This document shows, piece after piece, positions 1,916 through 15,309 of a stretch of DNA of 64,000 nucleotides. Made by a program: the position numbers and the translations under genes. Location: the NCBI RefSeq assembly GCF_015354245.1, contig NZ_JADKYZ010000006.1, forward strand, positions 62,001-126,000, read 5' to 3'. The notes under the pieces were generated by a model. It searched no databases, had not been told where the DNA came from, and was given only the letters and a program-made list of their open reading frames with translations. Origin of the DNA: Diaphorobacter caeni. GTDB lineage: Bacteria; Pseudomonadota; Gammaproteobacteria; Burkholderiales; Burkholderiaceae_C. The first letter of the stretch is position 1; every line of letters starts with the position of its first letter.

Positions 1916-3532
1916 ATGCAACACGACAAGATCCTCATCCTCGATTTTGGCTCGCAGGTCACGCAGCTGATCGCCCGCCGCGTGCGCGAAGCACATGTCT
2001 ACTGCGAAGTCCATCCCTGCGACGTGACGAGCGACTGGGTGCGCGAGTTCGCCGCCGACGGCAAGCTCAAGGGCGTGATCCTTTCGGGCAGCCACGCCAG
2101 CGTCTACGAAGTGGACGACCGCGCACCCGACGCCGTGTTCGAGCTCGGCATCCCCGTGCTCGGCATCTGCTACGGCATGCAGACCATGGCCACGCAGCTC
2201 GGCGGCAAGGTCGAGGGCTCCAACTCCCGTGAATTCGGCTATGCCGAAGTGCGCGCGCACGGCCACACCAAGCTGCTTGAAGGCATCGAAGACTTCAGCA
2301 CGCCCGAAGGCCACGGCATGCTCAAGGTCTGGATGAGCCACGGCGACAAGGTCACCCAGCTGCCCGAAGGCTTCAAGGTCATGGCCTCCACGCCAAGCTG
2401 CCCCATCGCCGGCATGGCCGACGAGGCGCGCCGCTACTACGCCGTGCAGTTCCACCCCGAAGTCACCCACACCGTGCAGGGCGCGGCCATGCTCAACCGC
2501 TTCGTGCACGGCATCTGCGGCGCGGGCCAGGACTGGATCATGGGCGACTACATCGAAGAAGCCGTCGCCAAGATCCGCGAACAAGTCGGCGACGAAGAAG
2601 TCATCCTCGGCCTCTCCGGTGGCGTGGACTCGTCCGTGGCTGCAGCGCTGATTCACCGCGCCATCGGCGACCAGCTCACCTGCGTGTTTGTCGACCACGG
2701 CCTGCTGCGCCTGAACGAAGGCGACATGGTCATGGACATGTTCGAAGGCAAGCTGCACGCCAAGGTCGTGCGCGTCGACGCCTCCGACCTGTTCCTCGGC
2801 GAACTCGCGGGCGTCTCCGAGCCCGAACAAAAGCGCAAGATCATCGGCCGTCTGTTCGTCGATGTGTTCAAGGCAGAAGCGGGCAAGCTCAAGGCCGCCA
2901 ACGCAGGCAGCAAGGGTGCCACCTTCCTCGCCCAAGGCACGATCTACCCGGACGTCATCGAATCCGGCGGCGCCAAGAGCAAGAAGGCCGTCACCATCAA
3001 GAGCCACCACAACGTCGGTGGCCTGCCGGAACAGCTCGGCTTGAAGCTCCTCGAACCCCTGCGCGACCTCTTCAAGGACGAAGTCCGCGAACTCGGCGTG
3101 GCCCTCGGCCTGCCGCGCGAAATGGTCTACCGTCACCCCTTCCCAGGCCCGGGCCTCGGCGTGCGCATCCTCGGTGAAGTGAAAAAGGAATACGCTGACT
3201 TGCTGCGTCGTGCAGACGCCATCTTCATCGAAGAACTGCGCAACTGGATCGACGAAGCCACCGGCAAGAGCTGGTACGACCTCACCAGCCAGGCCTTCAC
3301 CGTCTTCCTGCCCGTCAAGAGCGTCGGCGTGATGGGCGACGGCCGCACATACGACTACGTGGTGGCACTGCGCGCAGTGCAGACCAGCGACTTCATGACC
3401 GCCGACTGGGCGGAGCTGCCTTATGGGTTGTTGAAGAAGACTTCAGGGCGCATCATCAACGAAGTGCGCGGCATCAACCGCGTGACCTATGACGTGAGCT
3501 CGAAGCCGCCGGCTACGATTGAGTGGGAGTGA
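1916..3532 (+). CDS. guaA: GMP synthase (glutamine-hydrolysing)
   Basis: GuaA aminates XMP to GMP using ATP and glutamine, the last step of guanine nucleotide synthesis. The 538-residue protein has the class I amidotransferase domain first, with the nucleophile C85 in LGICYGMQ and H180/E182 in QFHPEV. The ATP pyrophosphatase domain follows, with the PP-loop SGGVDSS at 234-240, then the C-terminal dimerisation domain ending in the usual IEWE. Length matches the family. A perfect intrinsic-terminator hairpin follows at 3566. The 3' end of guaA is a known integration site for genomic islands in several bacteria, and a defence island starts here about 160 bases after the stop. Confidence 0.98.
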
Positions 3533-3565
3533 TTCAGCGCTGAACCGTTGCTGATTTCGCGACAG

Positions 3566-3590
3566 AAATGCCCGCAATCTGCGGGCATTT
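3566..3590 (+). terminator. Intrinsic terminator hairpin after guaA
   Basis: AAATGCCCGCA, a 3-base ATC loop, and TGCGGGCATTT form a perfect 11-bp stem 34 bases after the guaA stop. The descending arm ends in a short T run. It should separate guaA transcription from the methyltransferase gene. Confidence 0.85.
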
Positions 3591-3694
3591 TCAGTGGTGA
3601 TGTCAGGTTGGCGAATGATGCGAAAAAACTGAAGCAGAATACTGGATCGCGCCATGATCCAATGGTCGAAAACAAGTGTCAGCAGGGTGGAAGT

Positions 3695-5221
3695 ATGTCG
3701 GTTCCGATCATTGATCTTTTCGCGGGTCCGGGAGGGCTGGGAGAAGGTTTTTCCTCAATTGAGGATCAAGAGAACAATCCCTTTTTCAATATTGCACTTT
3801 CCATTGAAAAAACTCCCGTTGCGCATCGGACGCTTGCCTTGCGTTCGGTCTTTCGACAGTTGCGCGGCACACCAGCAGTGGCGCACTACTACCGTTACAT
3901 GCGTGGCGAAATTGATGAGACAAAATTTCGCGCGGAACCCGAGGTCGCGCTCGCTTTCGAGCACGCCTCGCGAGAGGCTCGGTGTCTTGAACTGGGGAAG
4001 GCGGACAACGCCGGCATTGACAAGGAGATCGGTGACGCTCTGAATGGCCGTGAGGATTGGGTGCTCATAGGAGGGCCACCATGCCAAGCATATTCGCTTG
4101 CAGGACGGTCTCGTCGAGCCAATGACGAAAACTTCGAGGCGGACGAGAAGCACTTCCTTTATCGCGAGTATCTGCGGATCATCAGGAAGCACAAGCCTGC
4201 GATTTTCGTCATGGAAAACGTCAAGGGGATGCTTTCGTCAAAACACTCCGGTTCGAGCATGTTCGAGCGAATCATTGGCGATCTCTCAAGGCCTTCACGA
4301 GATCTGGAGTATGAGATTCGCTCGTTCGTGAAGCATGGCGATCAGAACTCGCTTGATCCACGGGACTACGTCATCGAGTCCGAGAGATTCGGGATTCCGC
4401 AAGCAAGGCATCGGGTCATCCTGTTGGGTGTCCGAAAGGGCTTGGGTACGCCGCAGCACGAACTGCTCGAGCAGTCGGCGAGATCCGCGACTGTGGCGGA
4501 CGCCATAGACTCGCTACCAAAAATCAGAAGCCGCCTGTCCAAGGGCGACACGTCCGAGGAGTGGAGGGCAGTGGTTCAAGGCGCGGCCACGCTGTTGTCA
4601 AACAGAAAGCATTCGGAGGACCTGCAGCAGGCCAAGACGGTCATGTCTTCGCGCGCAAGGGACGCGATTCACGGATCGGTGGGAGCCGCGTTCATGCCGT
4701 TCAAGTTTTCTGGAGCCTTTCAATCATCTGTGCTGGGGAAGTGGTTGTCCGATACGGAGTTGGGTGGCGTTTGTCAGCATGAGGCTCGCTCGCATATGGC
4801 ATCGGATCTTCAGCGCTACATGTTTGCCTCGTCATTCGCGGTCGCGCTCAGTCGGTCACCGCGATTGGAAGAGTATCCCAGCGGACTTTTGCCGAACCAT
4901 GGGAATGTGGCCGATATGGCAGAGCGGAAGTCGTTGCCTTTCAACGACCGGTTTCGCGTGCAATGCAGAAATTTCCCAGCCACCACGGTGGTGGCCCACA
5001 TTGCCAAGGATGGCCACTACTACATCCACTACGATCCCTCGCAATGCAGAAGTCTCACCGTCCGTGAAGCGGCAAGGTTGCAGACGTTTCCGGACAACTA
5101 TTTCTTCATGGGAAACCGCACTGAACAGTACACGCAGATAGGCAATGCAGTACCGCCGCTGTTGGCGAGGCAGTTGGGGCGTGTTGTCAAGAACCTGTTG
5201 ACAGGGCGGGTACACAAATGA
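3695..5221 (+). CDS. DNA (cytosine-5-)-methyltransferase, Dcm type
   Basis: A 508-residue 5-methylcytosine methyltransferase that transfers a methyl group from S-adenosylmethionine to a specific cytosine. Motifs appear in normal order: I (DLFAGPGGLGEGF, residues 7-19), IV with the catalytic C130 (GGPPCQAYS), VI (ENVKGM), VIII (QARHRVILLG), a target-recognition region of roughly 200 residues, IX (REAARLQTFP) and X (QIGNAVPP). The start at 3695 is chosen because GGGTGG lies just upstream; in-frame ATG 3662 is possible. It is convergent with the Vsr gene, 31 bases apart, the classic partner that repairs T:G mismatches from deaminated 5-methylcytosine. Here it probably marks self DNA for the neighbouring effector genes. 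The target site is not predictable by eye. Confidence 0.95.
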   Translation: MSVPIIDLFAGPGGLGEGFSSIEDQENNPFFNIALSIEKTPVAHRTLALRSVFRQLRGTPAVAHYYRYMRGEIDETKFRAEPEVALAFEHASREARCLELGKADNAGIDKEIGDALNGREDWVLIGGPPCQAYSLAGRSRRANDENFEADEKHFLYREYLRIIRKHKPAIFVMENVKGMLSSKHSGSSMFERIIGDLSRPSRDLEYEIRSFVKHGDQNSLDPRDYVIESERFGIPQARHRVILLGVRKGLGTPQHELLEQSARSATVADAIDSLPKIRSRLSKGDTSEEWRAVVQGAATLLSNRKHSEDLQQAKTVMSSRARDAIHGSVGAAFMPFKFSGAFQSSVLGKWLSDTELGGVCQHEARSHMASDLQRYMFASSFAVALSRSPRLEEYPSGLLPNHGNVADMAERKSLPFNDRFRVQCRNFPATTVVAHIAKDGHYYIHYDPSQCRSLTVREAARLQTFPDNYFFMGNRTEQYTQIGNAVPPLLARQLGRVVKNLLTGRVHK

Positions 5222-5252: not shown

Positions 5253-5714
5253 CTACTGGGTGGGGGCGCTCAAAACCAGTATTGACTCTTTTCCGGTCAG
5301 CCAATCGGAAACACGCTTCGCAGCCGCATCTGCGGAATGCTTTATCGAGCATTCCCAAACTGTTGCGACACGCCAACCGTCCTTGCAAAGATTGTCGACG
5401 TCGCGAATGTCCCGTTCGACATTCTTTTTGAACTTCTCTTGCCAGAACTCGGCATTTGTCTTGGGCACGGCAGCGAATTTGCAGTCTGCATGACGGTGCC
5501 AGAAACAGCCGTGAACGAATACGACGGCTCGATATTTGGACAATACGATGTCCGGGGAACCAGGCAGTCGTCGGACATTCAGTCGGTAGCGGAATCCCAA
5601 TGCGTGGAGGCGAAGACGTAGTGCCAGTTCAGGCACGGTGTTCTTGCCGCGGATCTGAGACATGTTTGCACTTCGTTGCGCAGTGGCGCTGAGGCGAATT
5701 TTTTCTGGTCTCAC
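5253..5714 (-). CDS. vsr: Very short patch repair endonuclease
   Basis: Vsr nicks DNA 5' of a T in T:G mismatches created when 5-methylcytosine deaminates. The 153-residue protein shows the N-terminal MSQIRGKNTVPE element, the catalytic aspartate D55 (GSPDIV) and the HGCFWHRHADC zinc-site segment (C70, H73, H75, C78), so it looks functional. The start is a GTG at 5714, supported by GGAGGTGA upstream; the internal ATG (M18) would cut off conserved sequence. It is the last gene of the minus-strand series, 75 bases after the AIPR gene, and faces the methyltransferase tail to tail. In such islands Vsr may also act as the strand-cutting partner of the system, but that is inference. Confidence 0.95.
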   Translation of the reverse strand: MRPEKIRLSATAQRSANMSQIRGKNTVPELALRLRLHALGFRYRLNVRRLPGSPDIVLSKYRAVVFVHGCFWHRHADCKFAAVPKTNAEFWQEKFKKNVERDIRDVDNLCKDGWRVATVWECSIKHSADAAAKRVSDWLTGKESILVLSAPTQ

Positions 5715-5789: not shown

Positions 5790-7568
5790 TTATGCCGAAA
5801 CCTCCGGTATATCCAATCTTGGAGATGATAAGGGCATCTCCATGACGGCATCGCGACACTCGGGGCGTTTCGCCCATTCAGAAATCATTCGGCCAGCAGA
5901 AGTTTTCTTCAGTTGCTCGTCGACTTCGCGAGACCAGCTTTCGATCTGTTGAAGCAATTCAGGTGAAATATTCTGCGATGTCCATACTCTGGAAAGATCA
6001 ATCCTATTGCCGAGTCTGGCAGCGAGTACTGAAATGGTATATGCGGTGATGTTGGCCTGAAAGGCTGGAAACATCGGGCGGATGAGCTTCTCTGATGCCT
6101 TGTAGATAATGGCCTTTGCGACCATTGACTTGAAATCATTGACTGTTGGAAGAGCTGGAGCCAATGAGGGATCCGCAGCCGCCATCGACTCCATGAATTT
6201 GGTGAAGTTCTTTTGAGCACCCAAACTCACAAAATTGGGCAGGCCGTTCCAAGCATTTACATATTTCCCCATGTCGGTCTTCGTGATTCGGCGAGATGCC
6301 GGGATGGCTTCCTTGAGCTGTTTGAGTCTCGTTGGTGTATGTCCCTCTCGAGTAAGCAGAGTCTTGTAACTGCCAGCGGATCGCTCGTAGAACCATTGAT
6401 TTGTCCCGTTCGGGCAATAGATTGTTCTGGACAGCTTTTCCATTTCGACGTGAAAGGGCTTGTTTGCTGACAGATCTGACTGCTTGACGGAGTTCTGGCT
6501 ATTGGCGAAACGAGAGACATCGGATATCAGAGCTTCTTCTGCAACGGGGTCGTTAGTTCGCATCACGATGATCTTTGCAGGAATTCTCACGCGGCTCAGA
6601 TCAGTCTGTGGGTACTTGCGCTTGGTGAAATAGAGTGACGCAGTTGTCTGACCGCCATTAACTATCTGCATGCCCTGTAACGTGGCGATGCCAATGGATC
6701 CATCTTCATTTTTTGCCAAGGCAAGTTTGTCGACGATGAGTACGAGTCCGTTGTTGTAGGCCATGAATCGTTCCGGTGCTGTTCGCAAAGTGGATTGAAT
6801 GCCTCCATTGACACTTTTGGAGCTGGCAACACTCAGGAACGAACGGACATTCGCCTCCAGCAATCGACTTCCGTACTTTTCATATAGGTGGCGAAGGGCG
6901 TCACCAGGTATCGCCGTCAGCGCATAGTCGTAATCACAGTCTTCCCCCGGAACATATACGCAGGGAAGGGAAGTTCCAGAAAGGTCTTGGAAGTTGACGA
7001 CCAACTCGTCCCGTGGTTTGCCTTCAGACATATGTCTGAACAGGCGCTCAATATCCATCACTTCAAGGCGAACAGCCTTGCCGGACACTTCCTGACTCTT
7101 GAATGACTTGCTTTTGGAAACGCGGTCAGTGATTACATAGATTCGGATGTCCTCCAGATTTACGTAGATTTTCTCTAATCGCGAGGCCAAAGCGTGAATG
7201 GGTGAACTTGGGTCGAGCTTTGATGCCACTTTGCGCTCTGCGCAAAGCGTAAGAAAACGCAATGCCTGCTTGGCTGCGGTGGTGGTTTCAGAGTCCGGAA
7301 TCTGTGTCGGGCTGTCGACGCCTGCATGGAGGCTCACGAAGAGATCGAGTTGATCGTCTTCGTCCGTGATTGCGTAGCCGCTCAGCCTGAGCGTGGCGGT
7401 GCCGACTCGACCTTCATAGCGACATGCAGTGGGCTCCTCGGTCATCCCGATCTCCGCCATATGTGACATGACGATATCCGTGAAGATCATCTCCTCGTAG
7501 AGTTGACCTGCCTGCATACGGGCTTGAACCTCGGCACGGGTCTCAAGCAGAAATTCTTCCAATGTCAT
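5790..7568 (-). CDS. AIPR-family protein (abortive phage infection type)
   Basis: A 592-residue protein of the AIPR family (PF10592), named for abortive phage resistance genes. The diagnostic core is visible as YNNGLVLIVDKLAL followed by LQGMQIVNGGQTTASLYF at about residues 270-315. The preceding N-terminal region has no motif I can assign. The start is ATG 7568, one base after the upstream nuclease stop, with AAGG 8 bases before; a TTG at 7577 is the alternative. It is the fifth gene of the island operon. AIPR proteins recur beside Z1, DUF4420 and MORC-like genes in predicted restriction systems. The biochemical activity is not established from sequence, and a nuclease or effector role is inference. 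Confidence 0.88.
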   Translation of the reverse strand: MTLEEFLLETRAEVQARMQAGQLYEEMIFTDIVMSHMAEIGMTEEPTACRYEGRVGTATLRLSGYAITDEDDQLDLFVSLHAGVDSPTQIPDSETTTAAKQALRFLTLCAERKVASKLDPSSPIHALASRLEKIYVNLEDIRIYVITDRVSKSKSFKSQEVSGKAVRLEVMDIERLFRHMSEGKPRDELVVNFQDLSGTSLPCVYVPGEDCDYDYALTAIPGDALRHLYEKYGSRLLEANVRSFLSVASSKSVNGGIQSTLRTAPERFMAYNNGLVLIVDKLALAKNEDGSIGIATLQGMQIVNGGQTTASLYFTKRKYPQTDLSRVRIPAKIIVMRTNDPVAEEALISDVSRFANSQNSVKQSDLSANKPFHVEMEKLSRTIYCPNGTNQWFYERSAGSYKTLLTREGHTPTRLKQLKEAIPASRRITKTDMGKYVNAWNGLPNFVSLGAQKNFTKFMESMAAADPSLAPALPTVNDFKSMVAKAIIYKASEKLIRPMFPAFQANITAYTISVLAARLGNRIDLSRVWTSQNISPELLQQIESWSREVDEQLKKTSAGRMISEWAKRPECRDAVMEMPLSSPRLDIPEVSA

Positions 7569-7569
7569 T

Positions 7570-8574
7570 TCAACCAACCTTCAATCTTTTCAGTACCTCT
7601 GCGAGGTCGCATGCTTCTCCGACTGCCTTGTCGAGGTCAATTTCGTATCTGGCATTCACTATGCCGACCTTTGATGCGCCGGATGTAAAGCGGGGGAAAT
7701 CCGCTCCCACCAGGATGAACCGGGTTTCGACGGCTTCGAAGAGGCGTGTGTAGCGCTCCGCATGCATATCCAGATACCCTACGGACACAAGTTTTTCCTC
7801 AAACAGCTGCGAGCCCGGAAGCTCTTTACGGAACCGGTTTCTCAGCGTCTCAATCAGTGTAGGCAGACTCATGCCCGATGTTGTATTGCGCAGGCGTACG
7901 CCACCCACGAACAACGGCTTGCGCACAGCGTCATCTAATTGCTCAAGTGAGCCGATCTTTGCCGGAAAGCCGTTGAGGGCGAGCGTGGACTTGACTTCAA
8001 TGGCACCCGTGCCCAGATGGAAATCCTGAATACCATCGCGCAGTGGTCCGATCCAGGATTCAAGTGTCAGCTCCGTGTCTTTGCCTTCATCAAGAATTCT
8101 TCTGAGGACAAGCAATTCCCCGAACAGTCCGATTTCAGCTTCAGCACTCAAAGCACTTTGGCCCTTGCGCATGAATTCCTGCCATGCCTTCACGCGGCGC
8201 AGAAAGATGGTCAGTGCCTGCGATTCCTCTGAGACCGTACAGGATGAAAGTGCCTGAACAATGTCTTCGACCATCGCAAGAAAGAACTCCGGCATGGCAT
8301 GTTCACGTCTGCTCAAGGCCAACCAGCAACAGTCGTTCTGCGACACGACTTCGATGGTGAAGCCTGCTCCGTCGGGCAACTGGCCGTTCGGTTTCAGAGG
8401 GTTCTGATTGAATCGGATGAGCATTGCCTCCGTTCTCTCCGGAAACTTGCGCCCTGCGTGTACCAATATCCCGTCAGACGGGGAAATCTGAATGCTGCGC
8501 CATCCCTTGCCATCTGCCGGGGGCTGGTCGAGGTAGGCCCATGCCCGCTCAATGTCTTCAATCGGTCGCGCCAT
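7570..8574 (-). CDS. PD-(D/E)XK motif protein (DUF4420-type nuclease)
   Basis: A 334-residue protein of the PD-(D/E)XK family found with Z1 and MORC-like genes. The nuclease signature is visible as D184 (GIQDFHLG) followed by E193-V-K195 (AIEVKST), with an acidic helix E153 (LFGELLVL) before it. That order suits a metal-dependent DNA-cleaving fold, so this is the best candidate for the DNA-cutting subunit. The start at 8574 (MARPIEDIERAW) has a strong GGAGGAG site 5 bases upstream and overlaps the Z1 gene by 17 bases, showing translational coupling. A longer reading from 8622 is less likely. DNA cleavage itself is inferred. Confidence 0.85.
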   Translation of the reverse strand: MARPIEDIERAWAYLDQPPADGKGWRSIQISPSDGILVHAGRKFPERTEAMLIRFNQNPLKPNGQLPDGAGFTIEVVSQNDCCWLALSRREHAMPEFFLAMVEDIVQALSSCTVSEESQALTIFLRRVKAWQEFMRKGQSALSAEAEIGLFGELLVLRRILDEGKDTELTLESWIGPLRDGIQDFHLGTGAIEVKSTLALNGFPAKIGSLEQLDDAVRKPLFVGGVRLRNTTSGMSLPTLIETLRNRFRKELPGSQLFEEKLVSVGYLDMHAERYTRLFEAVETRFILVGADFPRFTSGASKVGIVNARYEIDLDKAVGEACDLAEVLKRLKVG

Positions 8575-11422
8575 ACTGCTCCTCCCAAAGCAGGTGATCG
8601 ACCTTGTATTCGACGGAGACATCGTGTTCGCTGCTGGGGAAGCTCACTGCGAATCCGATGATCGGTTTGTTCCAGCCCTCGATATTCAATTCCGTTTGGG
8701 TGCCGTCATTCAATTTGAAAGGGGAAATCGGATAAATCAGCAGTATCCCTCTGTGAGTGGCTTCGCCCCGATCTCTGCGTCTGAGCGCACGAAGCGATTG
8801 GTTGCTGGGTCGGGTTGGCTTGGTTGAATTGCTATCGCCCTTTTTCTGCCAAGCGTCCACGCTTGCTTGAAGTGCATTCTGCCATTCGTCGAGTCCGGTA
8901 TCGATGCTCTCGTCTGCGGGGTCTGTCAATACACCGATTGCTGAAGTCTGAGAATCTAGGAACTTGCGATTTGTAAGACGGCTGATATCGTATTCCTTCG
9001 CAATTTGATAGCCGCGGAAATGCGCATTCTCCCGGCCCTCGGCAAGCAGCGCCACAGTCCATTTTTTTAGTTCGTCTTTTGAGTTCATTTTTTCTATGAA
9101 CTCAGCGATCACACTTCCATTTGCGCGGTCAATCTTCGGCACTCGGGAGTATGCCTTCAAGAACTCGATGACTTTGGATGCATCGATATCTTTCCAAAGC
9201 CATGAGTTTTTCCAGTTGTGCGGACCGTCGGGTCTTAGCTGAGATGGGGCGGCTTTCGCATGTGGCCCCATCGACTCGATCAGTGTTTTGGTAACGTCCA
9301 GATTGTTCTGAAGTGCGCCATGAGCGCGAGGGAAATTGATGGTCTGAGTGAGAGCACCGCTGTACGAGAGATTGATTGTCTGAGCTCTGCGCATCTTCAT
9401 TGGTGAAGTGACCAGCAGACTGGGATGTGAGGCGACCTTCAAGCCATACTTGTCCGGGGTTGAACCAATGGCCATCATTTCGTCGAACTCCTGGCGCAGT
9501 TCCTCTGCCGCGTCAGCGATCAGTCCGAAGCTCGTGATCAGGTCTGCGGTGGTGTATAGACGGCAGAGATCAAGGTATCCGGGGCGATATCCGAACCATC
9601 TGCCCATCTGCATGAGCGTGTCATACATCTTCGTCGTGCGCACGAAGTAGCTGACCACCAGACCCTCAAGCGTCAGCCCGCGGGCCAACTTGTCGCCTCC
9701 CACGGCAATCACCTTCAGGCCCGTCTGCTCTTTTTCAACATAGTCGAGTGCATCCTTGGCGGAACCATTGATGGTTTTGACGGCGATGTCCACGGCCGCA
9801 TCGGGCAGAACTTTCAGCACCTGCTCCCAAGTGGGCAACGCGGCTGTAATTTCTTCCTCTCCGAGGATGTTCTTCATTTCCGCATGAGTAGGCTCGAAAT
9901 CGGTCTCCCACATATCACGCAATTGAGTCAGCAGTTTCTCCGCGTCCACGCCTCGGGTCAGGCGCTGAGTCACCCGTTGCACGTATTGCTCCACTTGAGC
10001 ACGCACCTTGTTCTGCACGTCTGTCAGGCGGGTGACGTGAATGAGCATTGAACAATGCTTGTTTTTCTGCCCGCGGCAAATCCGTACTGCATAGGTCATC
10101 AGGAAGGACAGAATCGCATTTTCAAGAGATGGAGGCAGTGCATCTTCACCTTTGAAGAGAGGGACATGATTCTTCTTGTGGCCTGCTGGCATCCAGCCGG
10201 TACGATTTTCACCCTCCTGATCTGAGAACTTCCTAATCAAGGGCAGTGTGCCAATTCGTTCACCTGTAGGCCCTGTCAAACCGAACACTCGCGCAGGCCC
10301 GACATAGTTGGAGGGAGCGGCAAGATTGACAATGAAGGAGCGTGGGAAAAGGTCTTCCCCTTCATCTTTGGTTGCGCCTCTGCGGTGAATGAATACGTTG
10401 GCGAATGGTGTTGCCGTGTAGCCCACATAAGCGGACTTGGCGAATGTGGCAAGTATCTGGCGGATCAGACTGTTGATCGCTTTGGGCTCGTGTTCCGGGT
10501 CTGCTTTACCCTCCGCGTCAAAATCCTGCTCTCCTGTGTCAATCGACGCATTGTCGGCCTCGTCATCAATCACCAGAATTGGAAGATTCGTTGAAATTCT
10601 GCGTCCGGACTCAGCGTCAGTGGCATTCGCGACATGATTGCTGCGCATCCATTTGAGCAACTTCTCAAGCACAGATTTGTTCTTTTTGACGACGAACAGC
10701 CAAGGGCGTTGCTCCGGAGTTACGGAGAATTTTCTTGCGGCTGCGCCATTGAAGTCTCCCTTGTCGTCACGTGAGGTCGCGCAGTTGGGATGAATCAAAG
10801 GATCCTGGTCCTCAAAAAACACCCCGATGGGGTTGCCGGGATCTCGATGAGGTGACGTTTCATAACCGAGAAACGCTTCTTCTAGGCGCATCTGAGTCTG
10901 AGAGCGCAGATTATTGTGCAGGCCAGCGAGGACGATGATGATCTTGTATCCGGCGTCTGCAGCCTTGCAGATCAAAGCCGAGTAGCTGCTGGTCTTGCCA
11001 GACTGCACATGCCCGACGACAAGTCCTCGTCGATCCCACGGTCCGGCTCGTTCGGGATTCTCAAGTTTGGCGAGGATGTTGTCTGTTGATCTGTCCAGCG
11101 CACCGACCACGGTCGTGGACATGGATCGCTCCATGTAGCGCTGCAGCCGTTGCCAGTAGCGCCAGTCAGACTTCATGGATGGCTGGAACCAGTCTTCATG
11201 GCCTTTTGAATCTGAAAGAGAGGAGTCGCTGGCGATGCTGTCGCTGAACCGACGCATCAACTCTGCGATTATTGCTTCCCCATCGTAGGCTTCTGGCGTG
11301 AGCTGCATGGTGGCAGCAGCCAGTTTAACGTTGTCGGAAATTGCTGCTGCAGACGGTTTCGGCCCCTTGGCCCTGATAAGAATCTGCGCGATCGAGGTGA
11401 TTTGTGTTTCAAGTTCCGTCAT
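8558..11422 (-). CDS. Z1-domain SF2-type ATPase/helicase-like protein
   Basis: A 954-residue Z1-domain (PF10593) protein with the helicase-like motifs of an SF2 motor. Walker A is GHVQSGKT at 137-144 and the DEAD-like motif is VIDDEAD at 284-290. TAT lies at 336-338 (GYTATPF). Motif V/VI-like segments GGDKLARGLTLEG (about 575-587) and QMGRWFGYR (605-613) follow. All catalytic elements look intact. The C-terminal 300 residues have no recognised domain. It is the third gene of the operon, 31 bases after the GHKL ATPase and overlapping the nuclease by 17 bases. In this class of system it is thought to translocate or remodel DNA for the nuclease partner; that role is inferred. Confidence 0.9.
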   Translation of the reverse strand: MTELETQITSIAQILIRAKGPKPSAAAISDNVKLAAATMQLTPEAYDGEAIIAELMRRFSDSIASDSSLSDSKGHEDWFQPSMKSDWRYWQRLQRYMERSMSTTVVGALDRSTDNILAKLENPERAGPWDRRGLVVGHVQSGKTSSYSALICKAADAGYKIIIVLAGLHNNLRSQTQMRLEEAFLGYETSPHRDPGNPIGVFFEDQDPLIHPNCATSRDDKGDFNGAAARKFSVTPEQRPWLFVVKKNKSVLEKLLKWMRSNHVANATDAESGRRISTNLPILVIDDEADNASIDTGEQDFDAEGKADPEHEPKAINSLIRQILATFAKSAYVGYTATPFANVFIHRRGATKDEGEDLFPRSFIVNLAAPSNYVGPARVFGLTGPTGERIGTLPLIRKFSDQEGENRTGWMPAGHKKNHVPLFKGEDALPPSLENAILSFLMTYAVRICRGQKNKHCSMLIHVTRLTDVQNKVRAQVEQYVQRVTQRLTRGVDAEKLLTQLRDMWETDFEPTHAEMKNILGEEEITAALPTWEQVLKVLPDAAVDIAVKTINGSAKDALDYVEKEQTGLKVIAVGGDKLARGLTLEGLVVSYFVRTTKMYDTLMQMGRWFGYRPGYLDLCRLYTTADLITSFGLIADAAEELRQEFDEMMAIGSTPDKYGLKVASHPSLLVTSPMKMRRAQTINLSYSGALTQTINFPRAHGALQNNLDVTKTLIESMGPHAKAAPSQLRPDGPHNWKNSWLWKDIDASKVIEFLKAYSRVPKIDRANGSVIAEFIEKMNSKDELKKWTVALLAEGRENAHFRGYQIAKEYDISRLTNRKFLDSQTSAIGVLTDPADESIDTGLDEWQNALQASVDAWQKKGDSNSTKPTRPSNQSLRALRRRDRGEATHRGILLIYPISPFKLNDGTQTELNIEGWNKPIIGFAVSFPSSEHDVSVEYKVDHLLWEEQYGATD

Positions 11423-11453: not shown

Positions 11454-12947
11454 TCACGCGATCTGCAGTGCCTTGATCGCGTCGGGATATTTCTGAAATG
11501 GTTCAGTACAGGCCAGTGCCTGCCTTGCCAATTCTTCGCTCATGCCACGTCGCTGAATCATGTCGTTGAACATCACCTGCAGCACATGCAGCAGTTCATC
11601 TGGAGGCGATTCAGCGAAATGATTGACCGGCGATTCCTTCTGTTCCATTGCGTCCAGCCATATGCGCTGAACCGGCACGGTTTCTTCGATGATCTTCAGC
11701 ATGGCATCCATGACGTCAGCATGATCGGAGCAGATGCTCAATGCCGCAGCTATGGCGGGATGTGATCTGTCGATGAGATGCTTGGTTCCCGCTTTGGTTG
11801 TCGATGACCGCCACGCGTGAACGATGGGTGTCGAGGAAGTGCGCGTGCTGGGACTGGCTCGGAACGCGAATGCATTGCGTGCTTTGGTACGCGTATCGGT
11901 GGCATGAGCAGTCAACCAGCCCCGAAGTGCGATGGGCGGGCGAGCCACGGATTTACGAACGTCGATCTTCCATTCCATATCGGCCGTATTTGGAATGTCG
12001 AGCTGAATGCGTGCCAGTCTGTGGGCTTCGTCGCGATTCCAACGGCGTGGTGTACCAAGGCCCAGCCAACCTCCGGCGAGCAGAAGTCGGCCGTTGCGGT
12101 AGATGTAGAAACCCTGTTGGGCTGGCCATCCGGATGGCCCGGCATTCTTCTCGAACTCATCGTTGTTCAATTGATCCCGATGAGGAAGCACGTGGCACTG
12201 CAGAGAGATCGTTCCATAGTCGGTGTGCCGGTGGGTAACAGGTGAAACCCATGGCTTGCCTGGGTGTCCGGACATGAATGGATCCCACGGAGCCACGGGG
12301 CGGTCGTTGATCAGCAGTTTGAGCCGCGCGGACGAGCCTTCCAGTAAACGGTGGAACACCATCGATAAGTGGGCTTCAACGTTGTCGATCACGTCGTTGA
12401 AATCATCGGCATCGAACCCTTTTGAGACGATTCGATCAAGCGTTTCCCAGAGAACGAGAGTTCCGTTTGATTTGTCAGTCAGTACATTCAAATGTGCTGC
12501 AGAGCCTTCTGCCGGACCTTCGAAGAGCAGCCAATCGTTGTTGTTGCTGGAGGCCAGAAGATCCAGATCCCAGCGCAGGCAACTGTGGATTCCGTCTTTC
12601 ATGCTAGAGACAGTGAGTCGCCTGCACTGTGAAAACGATGCTGTTTTCAATCCCATTCCAAAACGCCCCAGATCATCGGCCGAGCGTGCCGTATCCGGGT
12701 TTTTGTCTCCGAGACGCATGGCTCCCTCAAGCTCAGCGTCATTCATTCCTACGCCATTGTCCAGAATGAGTATGCGACTTCGCGCACCATTCCATTGAAA
12801 GCTCAAGCGAACTTCCGTCGCTTTCGCCGCGATGCTGTTATCGATGATGTCCGCCAACGCTGCTGCAGTTGAGTATCCGAGACCTCTCAGCGACTCAAGC
12901 ATCGCCGCAGCCCTCGGCGGTGCGCTTCTGGTTTTCTCAGTGGTCAT
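11454..12947 (-). CDS. MORC/MutL-like GHKL ATPase
   Basis: A 497-residue GHKL-fold ATPase. The Bergerat ATP site is complete: N-box LADIIDNSI (31-39), G1 motif DNGVGM (63-68) and G2 lid DDLGRFGMGLKTAS (91-104). A downstream WKIDVRKS segment carries the S5-domain lysine typical of MutL/MORC-type enzymes. No kinase domain, response receiver or membrane segment is present, so it is not a sensor histidine kinase. Prokaryotic MORC-like ATPases coupled to Z1 and nuclease genes were described computationally as parts of restriction-modification-like systems (Iyer, Abhiman and Aravind, 2008, from memory). It starts 16 bases after the sigma-factor gene, so the two are co-transcribed. It probably dimerises on ATP binding and clamps DNA. 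Confidence 0.9.
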   Translation of the reverse strand: MTTEKTRSAPPRAAAMLESLRGLGYSTAAALADIIDNSIAAKATEVRLSFQWNGARSRILILDNGVGMNDAELEGAMRLGDKNPDTARSADDLGRFGMGLKTASFSQCRRLTVSSMKDGIHSCLRWDLDLLASSNNNDWLLFEGPAEGSAAHLNVLTDKSNGTLVLWETLDRIVSKGFDADDFNDVIDNVEAHLSMVFHRLLEGSSARLKLLINDRPVAPWDPFMSGHPGKPWVSPVTHRHTDYGTISLQCHVLPHRDQLNNDEFEKNAGPSGWPAQQGFYIYRNGRLLLAGGWLGLGTPRRWNRDEAHRLARIQLDIPNTADMEWKIDVRKSVARPPIALRGWLTAHATDTRTKARNAFAFRASPSTRTSSTPIVHAWRSSTTKAGTKHLIDRSHPAIAAALSICSDHADVMDAMLKIIEETVPVQRIWLDAMEQKESPVNHFAESPPDELLHVLQVMFNDMIQRRGMSEELARQALACTEPFQKYPDAIKALQIA

Positions 12948-12963: not shown

Positions 12964-15210
12964 TCAATTTGCCGGTTCAGTAAATTCTGGGTCAGAATGA
13001 GCGAGACCCCTGAGGGGGCGGCCGTACAGCTTCCTGCTCAGCGCTTGCAATGCCACCTTTCGGCGAAAAGTACTCATGACTTTCTGCTCGATTTGTCTGA
13101 TGCGCTCTCGCGTCACTTCATGGCGGCTTCCGATCTCCTCAAGCGTGAAATTGCTGGGCACTCCAATTCCGTAGCGCAGACGGACGACATTCGCGTGCAT
13201 TCGTTTGTGACTTGCGAGCATCTCGTCAACAATGCTTTTCAATTGATTTGCCGCGAGCCGCCCTTCGGGGTGTTCCAAGTCGGATTCTTCTAGGCGCAGG
13301 ACGTCGACGTTATCCAGTGGAACATCCTCAATGGAGTGCATCTCCCATGTGAGCGACTGCAGCAAATCGATCAATTTGGGTGTTGACTTGAGTCGCAGGG
13401 CCAATTCCGCGCGGGTAGGAGCGCGACCTGTCTGCAATTCGAACGATAGACGTTCGCGTGAATAGAGTCTGAGCTTTTCGTGTATGTGGACTGGGATTCG
13501 AATGGTACGGCCGCTGTCTGCAATGTGACGTGAAACACTCTGGCGAATCCACCAGCTTGCGTAAGTGGAGAATTTGAATCCTTTGCGCCAGTCGTACTTG
13601 TCTGCGGCCTTGAGGAGCCCCAAATTTCCAGCTTGCGTGAGGTCGTCGATGGGTTCGCCCGAATGAATGAATTTTCTCGACAGGTGTTGTGCCAGTCTGA
13701 GGTTGGCCGAAACGAGATGATCGCGTGCCTGCAGGTAGCTTCTGATTGCAGTGTCGAAAACTGCATACTCGTTGGAAGGATCGTTCTGATGCGCAGCGTG
13801 CAATTCAAGCAGAAATGTGCGGGTCAGCGACAATTGTTCGACGGCCGCTAGCCGCGCGCCGTCTCGACTCGAAATCTCGTCAGCAGTGGTGGCCAACCTC
13901 TCCAGCGCAGACTCGAATCGAGGATATCGTTGTTCGCAGGGGCCTAGTCCATCGAAATCCTCATTGTGGTCACGCATGTCGGAGCTGTCAGCATTGTCGT
14001 CAGTATTTTTTTCGTAGCTGTCGGGGGGATCGTTTTCAGAATCCTGAGAGACACTCGAAAGTGGACGCGCGCCGGAAAGGACCAGCCTGCCAAAATCAAT
14101 GGTCGTGGAAATTCCTCGATGCCATTCAGCCAGTGCTTCGAGGGAGGTCTGAATCGCGGCTTCCATGGATTGCCCTAGCTGGATTTCCTGTTCTGCGGTC
14201 AGCAGCCGAAAAGCTTGAGCCTCCTTGAGAAACATGAGAGAAGGTGTCCAGCGACCCGAAATTGTTGATTCGACCCAATAGCATGCTTCGTTGAGTTGCT
14301 CGGATTCGTCAACCGTTTCTCGGCAGAGTTCCGATGCTTCTGAATGCTCAATGGAATTTGTCAATGCATTTCCGATTGGATTCGAATCGAGTACTTCCAC
14401 CTGTAGCTCTGCCATGGCGGATTTCAAAACGGACAGCGCAAAGTCCGCATCAGAACACTTGATCCGACGGGATAGAGCTATCAGTTGTTCATTCTTGGCG
14501 AATCCAGATCGGATGGCCGTTTTGAGCAGATCACGAAGATCAACTTGGTCTGCCGTTGTCTTGGGGGCTGGGGAGTCGGGTAGTGACGTTGGCCCCTCAA
14601 GCCAATGCTCTCCTGTCTCTACTGGAGCATGTGTGGATATCGCGTGTTGTATTCTTCCCGCGACGATTGTGAGCGTTGGATCAGGTTGGACTTCACTTGG
14701 CGTGTCGTCGGGTTCCCATTTCATCTCGTCCAATTCCGTTCCCAGACCTGCATCTACGAATGATGCTTCTGAGCCGGATTTTGGGGGCGATCCAATCGCA
14801 CCTTCATGTTCCGGTGACAAGGGGTTTTCCACAGAGTCGTCGAAACACGATGAAGTTAGCAACTGCTGGATCGCCGAACTTTTCGTAGAGATATAGGAGC
14901 GTGCTGTTCTGCCTGAACGATCAACAAGAGTCGGATCGGCTCCGGCTGCCAAAAGAAGGGCACAGATTGAAGGCTTGTCGGCGCGAGCAGCCAACATGAG
15001 CGGAGTCAGTCCGAAATTGTCGCTTGCATTGACATTGTCACCGCGAGCGATATGCAACTTAACGGCATCGACCACGCCGGCTACTATGGCCATTCGAAAA
15101 AAAGGATTCAGACTGTGTGAAGCACTTTTGATTCGATCATCTAGGCGCTCGCCAAGAAGAGGGGGCAGACTTTTTTCGTCGAGGGCCCGATGACTGGTAC
15201 CGTCTCCCAT
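12964..15210 (-). CDS. Ankyrin-repeat/primary-type sigma-70 fusion protein
   Basis: A 748-residue protein. Ankyrin-like repeats at about 40-120 include the FGLTPLMLAARADK unit and the GADPTLVDRSGRTA unit. After an acidic linker come sigma-70 parts in order: a region 1.1-like helical domain at about 224-277 (LKTAIRSGFAKNEQLIALSR), region 1.2 (FLKEAQAFRLLTAEQEIQLG), a long acidic insertion, regions 2.1-2.4 (STYASWWIRQSVSR, then GRTIRIPVH), region 3, and region 4.2 (TLEEIGSRHEVTRERIRQIE). Promoter-reading residues resemble RpoD. The start is ATG 15210, though TTG 15243 is possible; neither has a clear ribosome-binding site. It heads the defence operon. It probably redirects RNA polymerase, perhaps to its own operon or during infection; that is inference. 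Confidence 0.88.
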   Translation of the reverse strand: MGDGTSHRALDEKSLPPLLGERLDDRIKSASHSLNPFFRMAIVAGVVDAVKLHIARGDNVNASDNFGLTPLMLAARADKPSICALLLAAGADPTLVDRSGRTARSYISTKSSAIQQLLTSSCFDDSVENPLSPEHEGAIGSPPKSGSEASFVDAGLGTELDEMKWEPDDTPSEVQPDPTLTIVAGRIQHAISTHAPVETGEHWLEGPTSLPDSPAPKTTADQVDLRDLLKTAIRSGFAKNEQLIALSRRIKCSDADFALSVLKSAMAELQVEVLDSNPIGNALTNSIEHSEASELCRETVDESEQLNEACYWVESTISGRWTPSLMFLKEAQAFRLLTAEQEIQLGQSMEAAIQTSLEALAEWHRGISTTIDFGRLVLSGARPLSSVSQDSENDPPDSYEKNTDDNADSSDMRDHNEDFDGLGPCEQRYPRFESALERLATTADEISSRDGARLAAVEQLSLTRTFLLELHAAHQNDPSNEYAVFDTAIRSYLQARDHLVSANLRLAQHLSRKFIHSGEPIDDLTQAGNLGLLKAADKYDWRKGFKFSTYASWWIRQSVSRHIADSGRTIRIPVHIHEKLRLYSRERLSFELQTGRAPTRAELALRLKSTPKLIDLLQSLTWEMHSIEDVPLDNVDVLRLEESDLEHPEGRLAANQLKSIVDEMLASHKRMHANVVRLRYGIGVPSNFTLEEIGSRHEVTRERIRQIEQKVMSTFRRKVALQALSRKLYGRPLRGLAHSDPEFTEPAN

Positions 15211-15309
15211 TTCTTTCTTCTGTTCTTGCTTCCGAATTTTCAACGATTGCTTAAATTACTGATTGCGAATAATTTTATAGGTAATTTTTTGAAATTTCCA
15301 TGAAGCATG

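What the first reader, a model, noticed from the sequence alone, without database searches (positions are those of the whole stretch)
12964..15210. Ankyrin-repeat protein fused to a complete primary-type sigma-70 factor at the head of a defence operon
The sequence shows ankyrin-like repeats (about residues 40-120) followed by a region 1.1-like domain, region 1.2, an acidic non-conserved insertion, regions 2.1-2.4, 3 and 4.2. Region 1.1 marks primary sigma factors; alternative sigma factors generally lack it. Residues that read -10 and -35 elements resemble RpoD (RQSVSR in 2.4, TRERIRQIE in 4.2). A defence cluster with its own RpoD-like factor could keep host or operon promoters active when a phage seizes the host sigma factor. 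Alternatively, the ankyrin part may bind a phage protein and switch transcription on. Both ideas are inference; I know of no characterised example.
Basis: partly seen in the sequence, partly recalled or inferred. Interest (0 to 1): 0.9.

Follow-up and report, generated by a model that had tools for sequence, protein, structure and literature searches.

The report
Sigma factor of Mza defence operon
The gene encodes an extra transcription-start (sigma) factor with a protein-docking (ankyrin) front end and is the first gene of a known kind of bacterial anti-virus operon called Mza; the gene family is already catalogued, but how this factor helps the defence is not known to us.

Summary
Window 12964-15243 (-) encodes ankyrin repeats, a conserved W-E...H.P...W stretch, a sigma region 1.1 (recognisable from the family profile, not from this sequence alone), then regions 1.2, 2 and 4. 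It heads an operon whose five proteins match MzaA-MzaE in order, beside Vsr and C5-methyltransferase genes. All five proteins score below NCBIfam's strict cut-offs, so this is a divergent member. Added here: ankyrin repeats occur in 13 of 13 MzaA examined; the N-terminal half was found only beside mzaB; most core, -10 and -35 residues are kept, while the acidic sigma-finger tip is lost in 10 of 11; 27 of 27 fetched loci with more distant mzaB lack a sigma gene, so MzaA is an accessory. Most likely mechanism (inferred): a working sigma subunit whose front end is held by an Mza partner, so that RNA polymerase and the Mza machine control or recruit each other. The sigma-takeover idea was not testable. 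Known kind, open mechanism.

The parts
12964..15243 (-). mzaA: ankyrin + region 1.1 + sigma-70 protein (ATG alternative start at 15210)
14842..15117 (-). three ankyrin repeats (about residues 43-134 of the 759 aa form)
14578..14748 (-). MzaA-specific conserved stretch with W-E ... H.P ... W ... LP (residues 166-222)
14371..14559 (-). region 1.1-like domain (about residues 229-291), seen at family level
14158..14235 (-). sigma region 1.2 (residues 337-362), just under the Pfam cut-off
13507..13716 (-). sigma region 2 (residues 510-579)
13072..13194 (-). sigma region 4 (residues 684-724)
11454..12947 (-). mzaB: MORC-type GHKL ATPase
8558..11422 (-). mzaC: helicase-like protein with Z1 domain
7570..8622 (-). 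mzaD: DUF4420, putative PD-(D/E)XK family
5790..7577 (-). mzaE: AIPR protein
5253..5714 (-). Vsr-type mismatch endonuclease
3548..5221 (+). C5-cytosine DNA methyltransferase, on the other strand
15272..15300 (-). weak sigma-70-like promoter match TGGAAA-17-TAAAAT; not above chance

Best explanation
The protein is MzaA, the accessory sigma subunit of a divergent Mza-type defence operon (MORC ATPase, Z1 helicase-like protein, PD-(D/E)XK nuclease family protein, AIPR). Shown: it is related to RpoD, keeps most core-binding and promoter-reading residues, carries a conserved ankyrin plus W-E/H.P/W front end, and that front half was found only directly before mzaB. Inferred: it binds RNA polymerase and RpoD-like promoters, and its front end is held by another Mza protein, so that the holoenzyme and the Mza machine gate or recruit each other. 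In the simplest version the bound front end keeps the sigma silent until the Mza complex engages foreign DNA, and the freed sigma then raises transcription of the operon or of host genes.
For: Five PADLOC Mza matches in order on one strand, mzaA ending 16 bases before mzaB. Of 38 fetched loci with an MzaB relative 10 have MzaA directly upstream; all 10 are among the 11 with MzaB identity of 52% or more (L107 and L109 of the ten were fetched because of a MzaA-model hit, which inflates the ten). Without ankyrin: 2 strong in 340 genomes of the class, both at mzaB, and 7 weak ones confined to the region 1.1 part, 6 of them verified as RpoD. Plasmids: 3 of 72,556 records, all mza loci. Residues equivalent to D403, Q406, N409, F427, W433, W434, Q437, R441, R451, R584, E585, R588, Q589 kept in 11 of 11 (E. 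coli numbers and roles recalled). Mean pairwise identity: ankyrin 0.45, region 4 0.42, region 2 0.52, linker 0.07 (10 of the 11 rows). None of the 27 loci with MzaB at 46% identity or less has a sigma motif, so MzaA is not needed for the core machine.
Against: No binding, transcription or phage data. Of 14 loci with MzaB at about 52% or more (11, 3 of the viral contigs) 12 have MzaA; L088 and L157 do not, both near a contig end, L157 with a transposase-like frame there. No promoter signal above chance upstream of mzaA in 10 loci (combined p 0.73), so self-activation has no support. Some promoter residues vary: T440 kept in 4 of 11, Y425 in 1, R423 in 5, M413 in 4, E407 in 8; the finger tip is lost in 10 of 11, which may mean poor initiation. 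L159 even lacks the W-E stretch and the first of the two region 2 tryptophans. All five proteins fall under the NCBIfam cut-offs. AlphaFold2 full-length confidence is low (mean pLDDT 61.6, pTM 0.31); no partner contact is modelled. PMC10924106 reports high variant density in mzaA (passages seen).
Confidence: 0.5

Rival explanations
1. Promoter docking: MzaA puts RNA polymerase at promoters of incoming DNA and its front end brings the MORC-helicase-nuclease complex there. Transcription itself is not the point.
For: DNA-reading and melting residues mostly kept, finger tip lost in 10 of 11; front end conserved like a fixed docking surface; in L088 a gene before mzaB carries the W-E/H.P/W stretch (E 9.7e-7 among 9835 frames) with no sigma domain, so the two halves can part.
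Against: L088's gene runs off its contig and may be a deletion remnant; no second copy was found. L080 and L158 have a more RpoD-like sigma. No complex modelled.
Confidence: 0.25
2. Timing control as by C proteins of restriction systems: the sigma delays or boosts mzaBCDE relative to the methyltransferase after transfer to a new host.
For: In the MzaA-bearing loci where a methyltransferase was found it lies on the other strand or behind an opposite-strand vsr gene in 9 of 9 (own plus 8); in the MzaA-lacking loci it is codirectional just upstream in 11 of 23 (table, my reading; L101 with a 1.45 kb gap not counted; viral loci not included). The block looks acquired: GC 50-58% against 62-69% around it; homology to four same-genus genomes stops at the guaA end.
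Against: Follows the MzaB groups, so perhaps one event; L074 has an annotated methyltransferase downstream on the same strand that my profile missed; no promoter signal upstream of mzaA; that the methyltransferase protects the same sites is assumed.
Confidence: 0.12
3. One reading: a backup RpoD-like factor that keeps promoters active when a phage protein captures the host sigma.
For: RpoD-like -35 and most -10 residues; region 1.1 and the last helix, recalled as targets of T7 Gp2 and T4 AsiA, are diverged in this protein.
Against: Does not explain the front end or the coupling to mzaBCDE; by my reading, 5 of 11 MzaA keep the RpoD-like last helix.
Confidence: 0.1

Closest known systems
Mza (MzaABCDE) anti-phage system, PADLOC PDLC02203-02207, NCBIfam NF041931-041935
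   Same: Five genes, same order, MzaA a sigma-70 protein; the NCBIfam MzaA profile spans the ankyrin part in relatives (L087 and L109 align from profile position 2 to 708 of 726)
   Different: All five proteins below the NCBIfam cut-offs (MzaA 426.8 of 800 bits); beside Vsr and C5-methyltransferase genes
RpoD (primary sigma-70)
   Same: Regions 1.1 (family level), 1.2, 2, 4; most core, -10 and -35 residues
   Different: Extra ankyrin and W-E/H.P/W front end; acidic finger tip lost; not the housekeeping copy; 234.9 bits against the RpoD cut-off of 555
MORC-Z1-DUF4420-AIPR restriction-like operons (Iyer 2008, PMC2292703, passages seen; type II system of PMC9523054, passages seen)
   Same: Genes B to E, often with methyltransferase and Vsr
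   Different: No sigma motif in the 27 fetched loci with MzaB at 46% identity or less; PMC9523054 says mzaA is present in only a few of its systems
Controller (C) proteins of restriction systems (recalled; search listing only)
   Same: Regulator gene in a restriction operon, as an analogy
   Different: C proteins are small helix-turn-helix proteins (recalled), not sigma factors

Membership tests
Mza system | genes A-B-C-D-E adjacent, in order, each matching its PADLOC model | tested here: met
   E 2.9e-55, 1.7e-186, 2.5e-290, 2.6e-57, 3.4e-204. The MzaA model alone does not discriminate: it scores ordinary RpoD higher
Mza system | first gene closer to the MzaA profile than to RpoD | tested here: met
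   NCBIfam MzaA 426.8 bits, RpoD 234.9 bits
Mza system | NCBIfam equivalog score cut-offs (a naming threshold for close orthologues, not a structural feature) | tested here: not met
   426.8/800, 710.3/850, 1103.4/1500, 351.5/420, 889/1050; the 9 other MzaA scored also fall below 800 (403-586 bits). Hence called a divergent Mza-type system
Mza system | protection against phage | not testable with these tools
   no experiment possible
primary sigma factor (RpoD) | regions 2 and 4 with core- and promoter-binding residues | tested here: met
   regions 2 and 4 in 11 of 11; 13 named residues in 11 of 11, others vary
primary sigma factor (RpoD) | regions 1.2 and 3 and the acidic 3.2 finger tip | tested here: inconclusive
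   Pfam 1.2 and 3 in 9 of 11 each at E 0.1; here 1.2 just under the cut-off and no region 3 hit; finger tip absent in 10 of 11
primary sigma factor (RpoD) | region 1.1 | tested here: met
   at family level only; structural match tied with L11; Pfam model 0 of 11
primary sigma factor (RpoD) | is the housekeeping sigma of the genome | tested here: not met
   a separate RpoD on contig C32 (88.1 bits for region 2; sequence); RpoD equivalog 234.9 of 555
ankyrin-repeat protein | consecutive ankyrin repeats and fold | tested here: met
   (11 of 11); also L158, L159
C-protein type restriction regulator | binds its own operon promoter and delays restriction | not testable with these tools
   no promoter signal found upstream of mzaA

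The most novel reading that the evidence does not exclude
MzaA makes RNA polymerase holoenzyme a part of a restriction-like immune machine: the sigma half selects promoters on incoming DNA and stalls there for lack of a normal finger, and the ankyrin/W-E front end hands the site to the MORC clamp, helicase and nuclease, so that transcription start sites of the invader are the recognised feature.
Probability: 0.2. Interest if true: 0.85.

Novelty: new member of a known kind. Interest (0 to 1): 0.42.

Why it matters
A sigma factor as a component of an anti-phage system would link defence to the transcription machinery that phages must seize. MzaA is catalogued, but in the paper listings and passages I saw nothing states what its sigma or its ankyrin part does (Gao 2020, the original report, was not held). 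The family anatomy given here (ankyrin in 13 of 13, a private W-E/H.P/W stretch in 12 of 13, mostly kept promoter residues, lost finger tip, accessory presence) makes separate domain deletions and a holoenzyme assay direct tests.

Tried and rejected
Housekeeping sigma: rejected, the genome has its own RpoD and the N-terminal half was found only at mzaB. Phage sigma: tblastn in phages gave 232 records, none covering 80% of the query; the 20 rows listed all lie in the sigma part. MzaA family profile as a search key: swamped by RpoD, matches in 100 of 100 genomes; replaced by MzaB and N-terminal profiles. Of three non-RpoD-like hits followed, two were mza loci (L107, L109) and one (L108, 663 aa) had no mza gene beside it. 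Promoter motif upstream of mzaA: no signal. Structure match of the 1.1 segment: Foldseek gave no match at E 0.001 or better, best rows ribosomal L11; VIA-align put two sigmaA region 1.1 chains first, tied with L11. Tree: 11 RpoD sequences form one group (support 89); with an own sigma that I read as sigma-32-like (L002) as outgroup, MzaA is not a clade. The first tree had an empty outgroup row and its root is void; searches failed. MzaE has a C-terminal tail of 94 residues or more in 17 of 22 MzaA-lacking loci and at most 19 in 9 of 9 MzaA-bearing ones; it follows the MzaB groups, so I gave it no weight. Sigma-less gene of L088: the family of its genome gave only itself (1 of 6 genomes), plasmids no match. 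Literature: listings; passages of PMC9523054, PMC10924106, PMC2292703, PMC12839542, PMC8195603, PMC12629846, PMC10855318, PMC11291487, PMC11811056; term look-ups without hits in PMC8565338 and PMC8011034. Other listed papers were not opened.

Full report
What is there. The minus-strand frame 12964-15243 encodes 759 aa (748 aa from the ATG at 15210). Pfam finds ankyrin repeats and sigma-70 regions 2 and 4 over their cut-offs and region 1.2 just under its cut-off. PADLOC assigns this gene and the four that follow to MzaA, MzaB, MzaC, MzaD and MzaE, in order. A Vsr gene follows mzaE; a C5-cytosine methyltransferase gene lies beyond it on the other strand. The block has GC 50-58% per kilobase between 3 and 16 kb, against 62-69% on either side within the first 22 kb. 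DNA homology with four of four same-genus genomes stops at the 3' end of the flanking guaA gene, so the block looks acquired.

Already catalogued. NCBIfam has the model 'MZA anti-phage system associated sigma-70 family RNA polymerase sigma factor MzaA'; this protein matches it with 426.8 bits (RpoD model 234.9) against a cut-off of 800, and the other four also fall short of their cut-offs. The PADLOC MzaA model does not discriminate by itself, since it scores ordinary RpoD higher than this protein. [quoted passage not shown] PMC10924106 (passages seen) lists mzaA among genes with high variant density, with variants in a sigma-70 non-essential domain. PMC2292703 (passages seen) describes MORC operons, some with this helicase type and nuclease, as restriction-like; a look-up of 'sigma' in its main text gave no hit. 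Four further papers only count Mza systems in the passages seen. In the listings and the passages opened I found no statement of MzaA's ankyrin part or of its mechanism.

Is it a family trait? Ten relatives of MzaA were read from loci with close MzaB. All 11 proteins hit ankyrin and sigma regions 2 and 4; regions 1.2 and 3 are hit in 9 each, the Pfam region 1.1 in none. Two more from viral contigs also have ankyrin and sigma parts, so 13 of 13; L159 lacks a hit to the W-E stretch and to the 1.1-like part. Mean pairwise identity over 10 of the 11 rows (L076, near-identical to L075, left out) is 0.45 in the ankyrin part, 0.36 in the following stretch with invariant W-E, H and W, 0.26 in the region 1.1-like part, 0.52 in region 2 and 0.42 in region 4, against 0.07 in the linker.

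Region 1.1. The family profile of this segment matches the RpoD region 1.1 profile (probability 92.5, E 4.8e-7), and 20 shuffled profiles give at most 0.4. Leaving out this protein gives 91.5; this protein alone gives 0.3; six other MzaA segments give at most 0.6. In 340 genomes the profile of the stretch without ankyrin finds, apart from two mza loci, seven weak matches confined to this part, of which six were verified as RpoD. The modelled segment has pLDDT 85-91 in its core. Its two best VIA-align matches, among the 124 chains compared, are sigmaA region 1.1, tied with L11.

Restriction to mza operons. In one search, 38 fetched loci had an MzaB relative; 10 had MzaA directly before mzaB. 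All 10 are among the 11 with MzaB identity of 52% or more. The eleventh (L088) starts 634 bases before mzaB and there encodes a fragment with the W-E/H.P/W stretch (E 9.7e-7) but no sigma part. None of the 27 loci at 46% or less had a sigma motif. Two of the ten (L107, L109) were fetched because of a MzaA-model hit, which inflates the ten. Among 12 viral-contig loci, three have MzaB at about 52% or more; two of these have MzaA and L157 has a transposase-like frame in its place.

What the sigma half can still do. In 11 of 11 the residues equivalent to D403, Q406, N409, F427, W433, W434, Q437, R441, R451, R584, E585, R588 and Q589 are kept. Others vary: T440 kept in 4 (serine here), Y425 in 1 (mostly phenylalanine), R423 in 5, M413 in 4, E407 in 8 (alanine here), S428 in 8, T429 in 9, Y430 in 10. 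The acidic tip of the region 3.2 finger is lost in 10 of 11 (E. coli numbers and roles recalled). So promoter reading and melting look largely intact, perhaps with a changed -12 preference, while initiation may be unusual. L158 keeps a nearly whole RpoD-like non-conserved region (my reading) and L080 scores over the RpoD cut-off (586.8 of 555), which fits descent from RpoD; the tree does not settle whether it happened once.

Mechanism. Shown: architecture, conservation, operon restriction, residue pattern. Inferred: core binding, promoter binding, a partner for the ankyrin part. For timing control: the methyltransferase is on the other strand or behind an opposite-strand vsr gene in 9 of 9 MzaA-bearing loci where my profile found one (own and eight; L074 has one annotated downstream on the same strand, which the profile missed; none in the stretch of L086), and codirectional just upstream in 11 of 23 MzaA-lacking loci (my reading). 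Against it: no promoter signal, and the pattern follows the MzaB groups.

Verdict. Observation confirmed; interpretation partly supported; a divergent member of a known kind, with an open and testable mechanism.

Noticed in passing
L088:3-635 (+): Gene before mzaB with the MzaA W-E/H.P/W stretch and no sigma domain; it runs off the contig start and has a repeated stretch. Sigma-less variant or deletion remnant.
   Followed up: partly
C-termini of MzaA in L086, L087, L089, L090, L107: Conserved C-terminal domain of about 60 residues ending in a G-[FY]...G..Y pattern, absent from the window's MzaA; no extra Pfam family was listed for these proteins.
   Followed up: no
L077:17421-19520 and other MzaA-lacking loci: MzaE carries a C-terminal tail of 94 residues or more in 17 of 22 loci without MzaA and at most 19 in 9 of 9 with MzaA.
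   Followed up: partly
window 3530-3548: Homology with four same-genus genomes ends at the guaA stop: an island border behind guaA.
   Followed up: partly
L109:9157-14544: mzaC split into two parts about 2.5 kb apart, as if interrupted by an insertion.
   Followed up: no
L157:1-548: Transposase-like frame directly before mzaB where mzaA is expected.
   Followed up: partly
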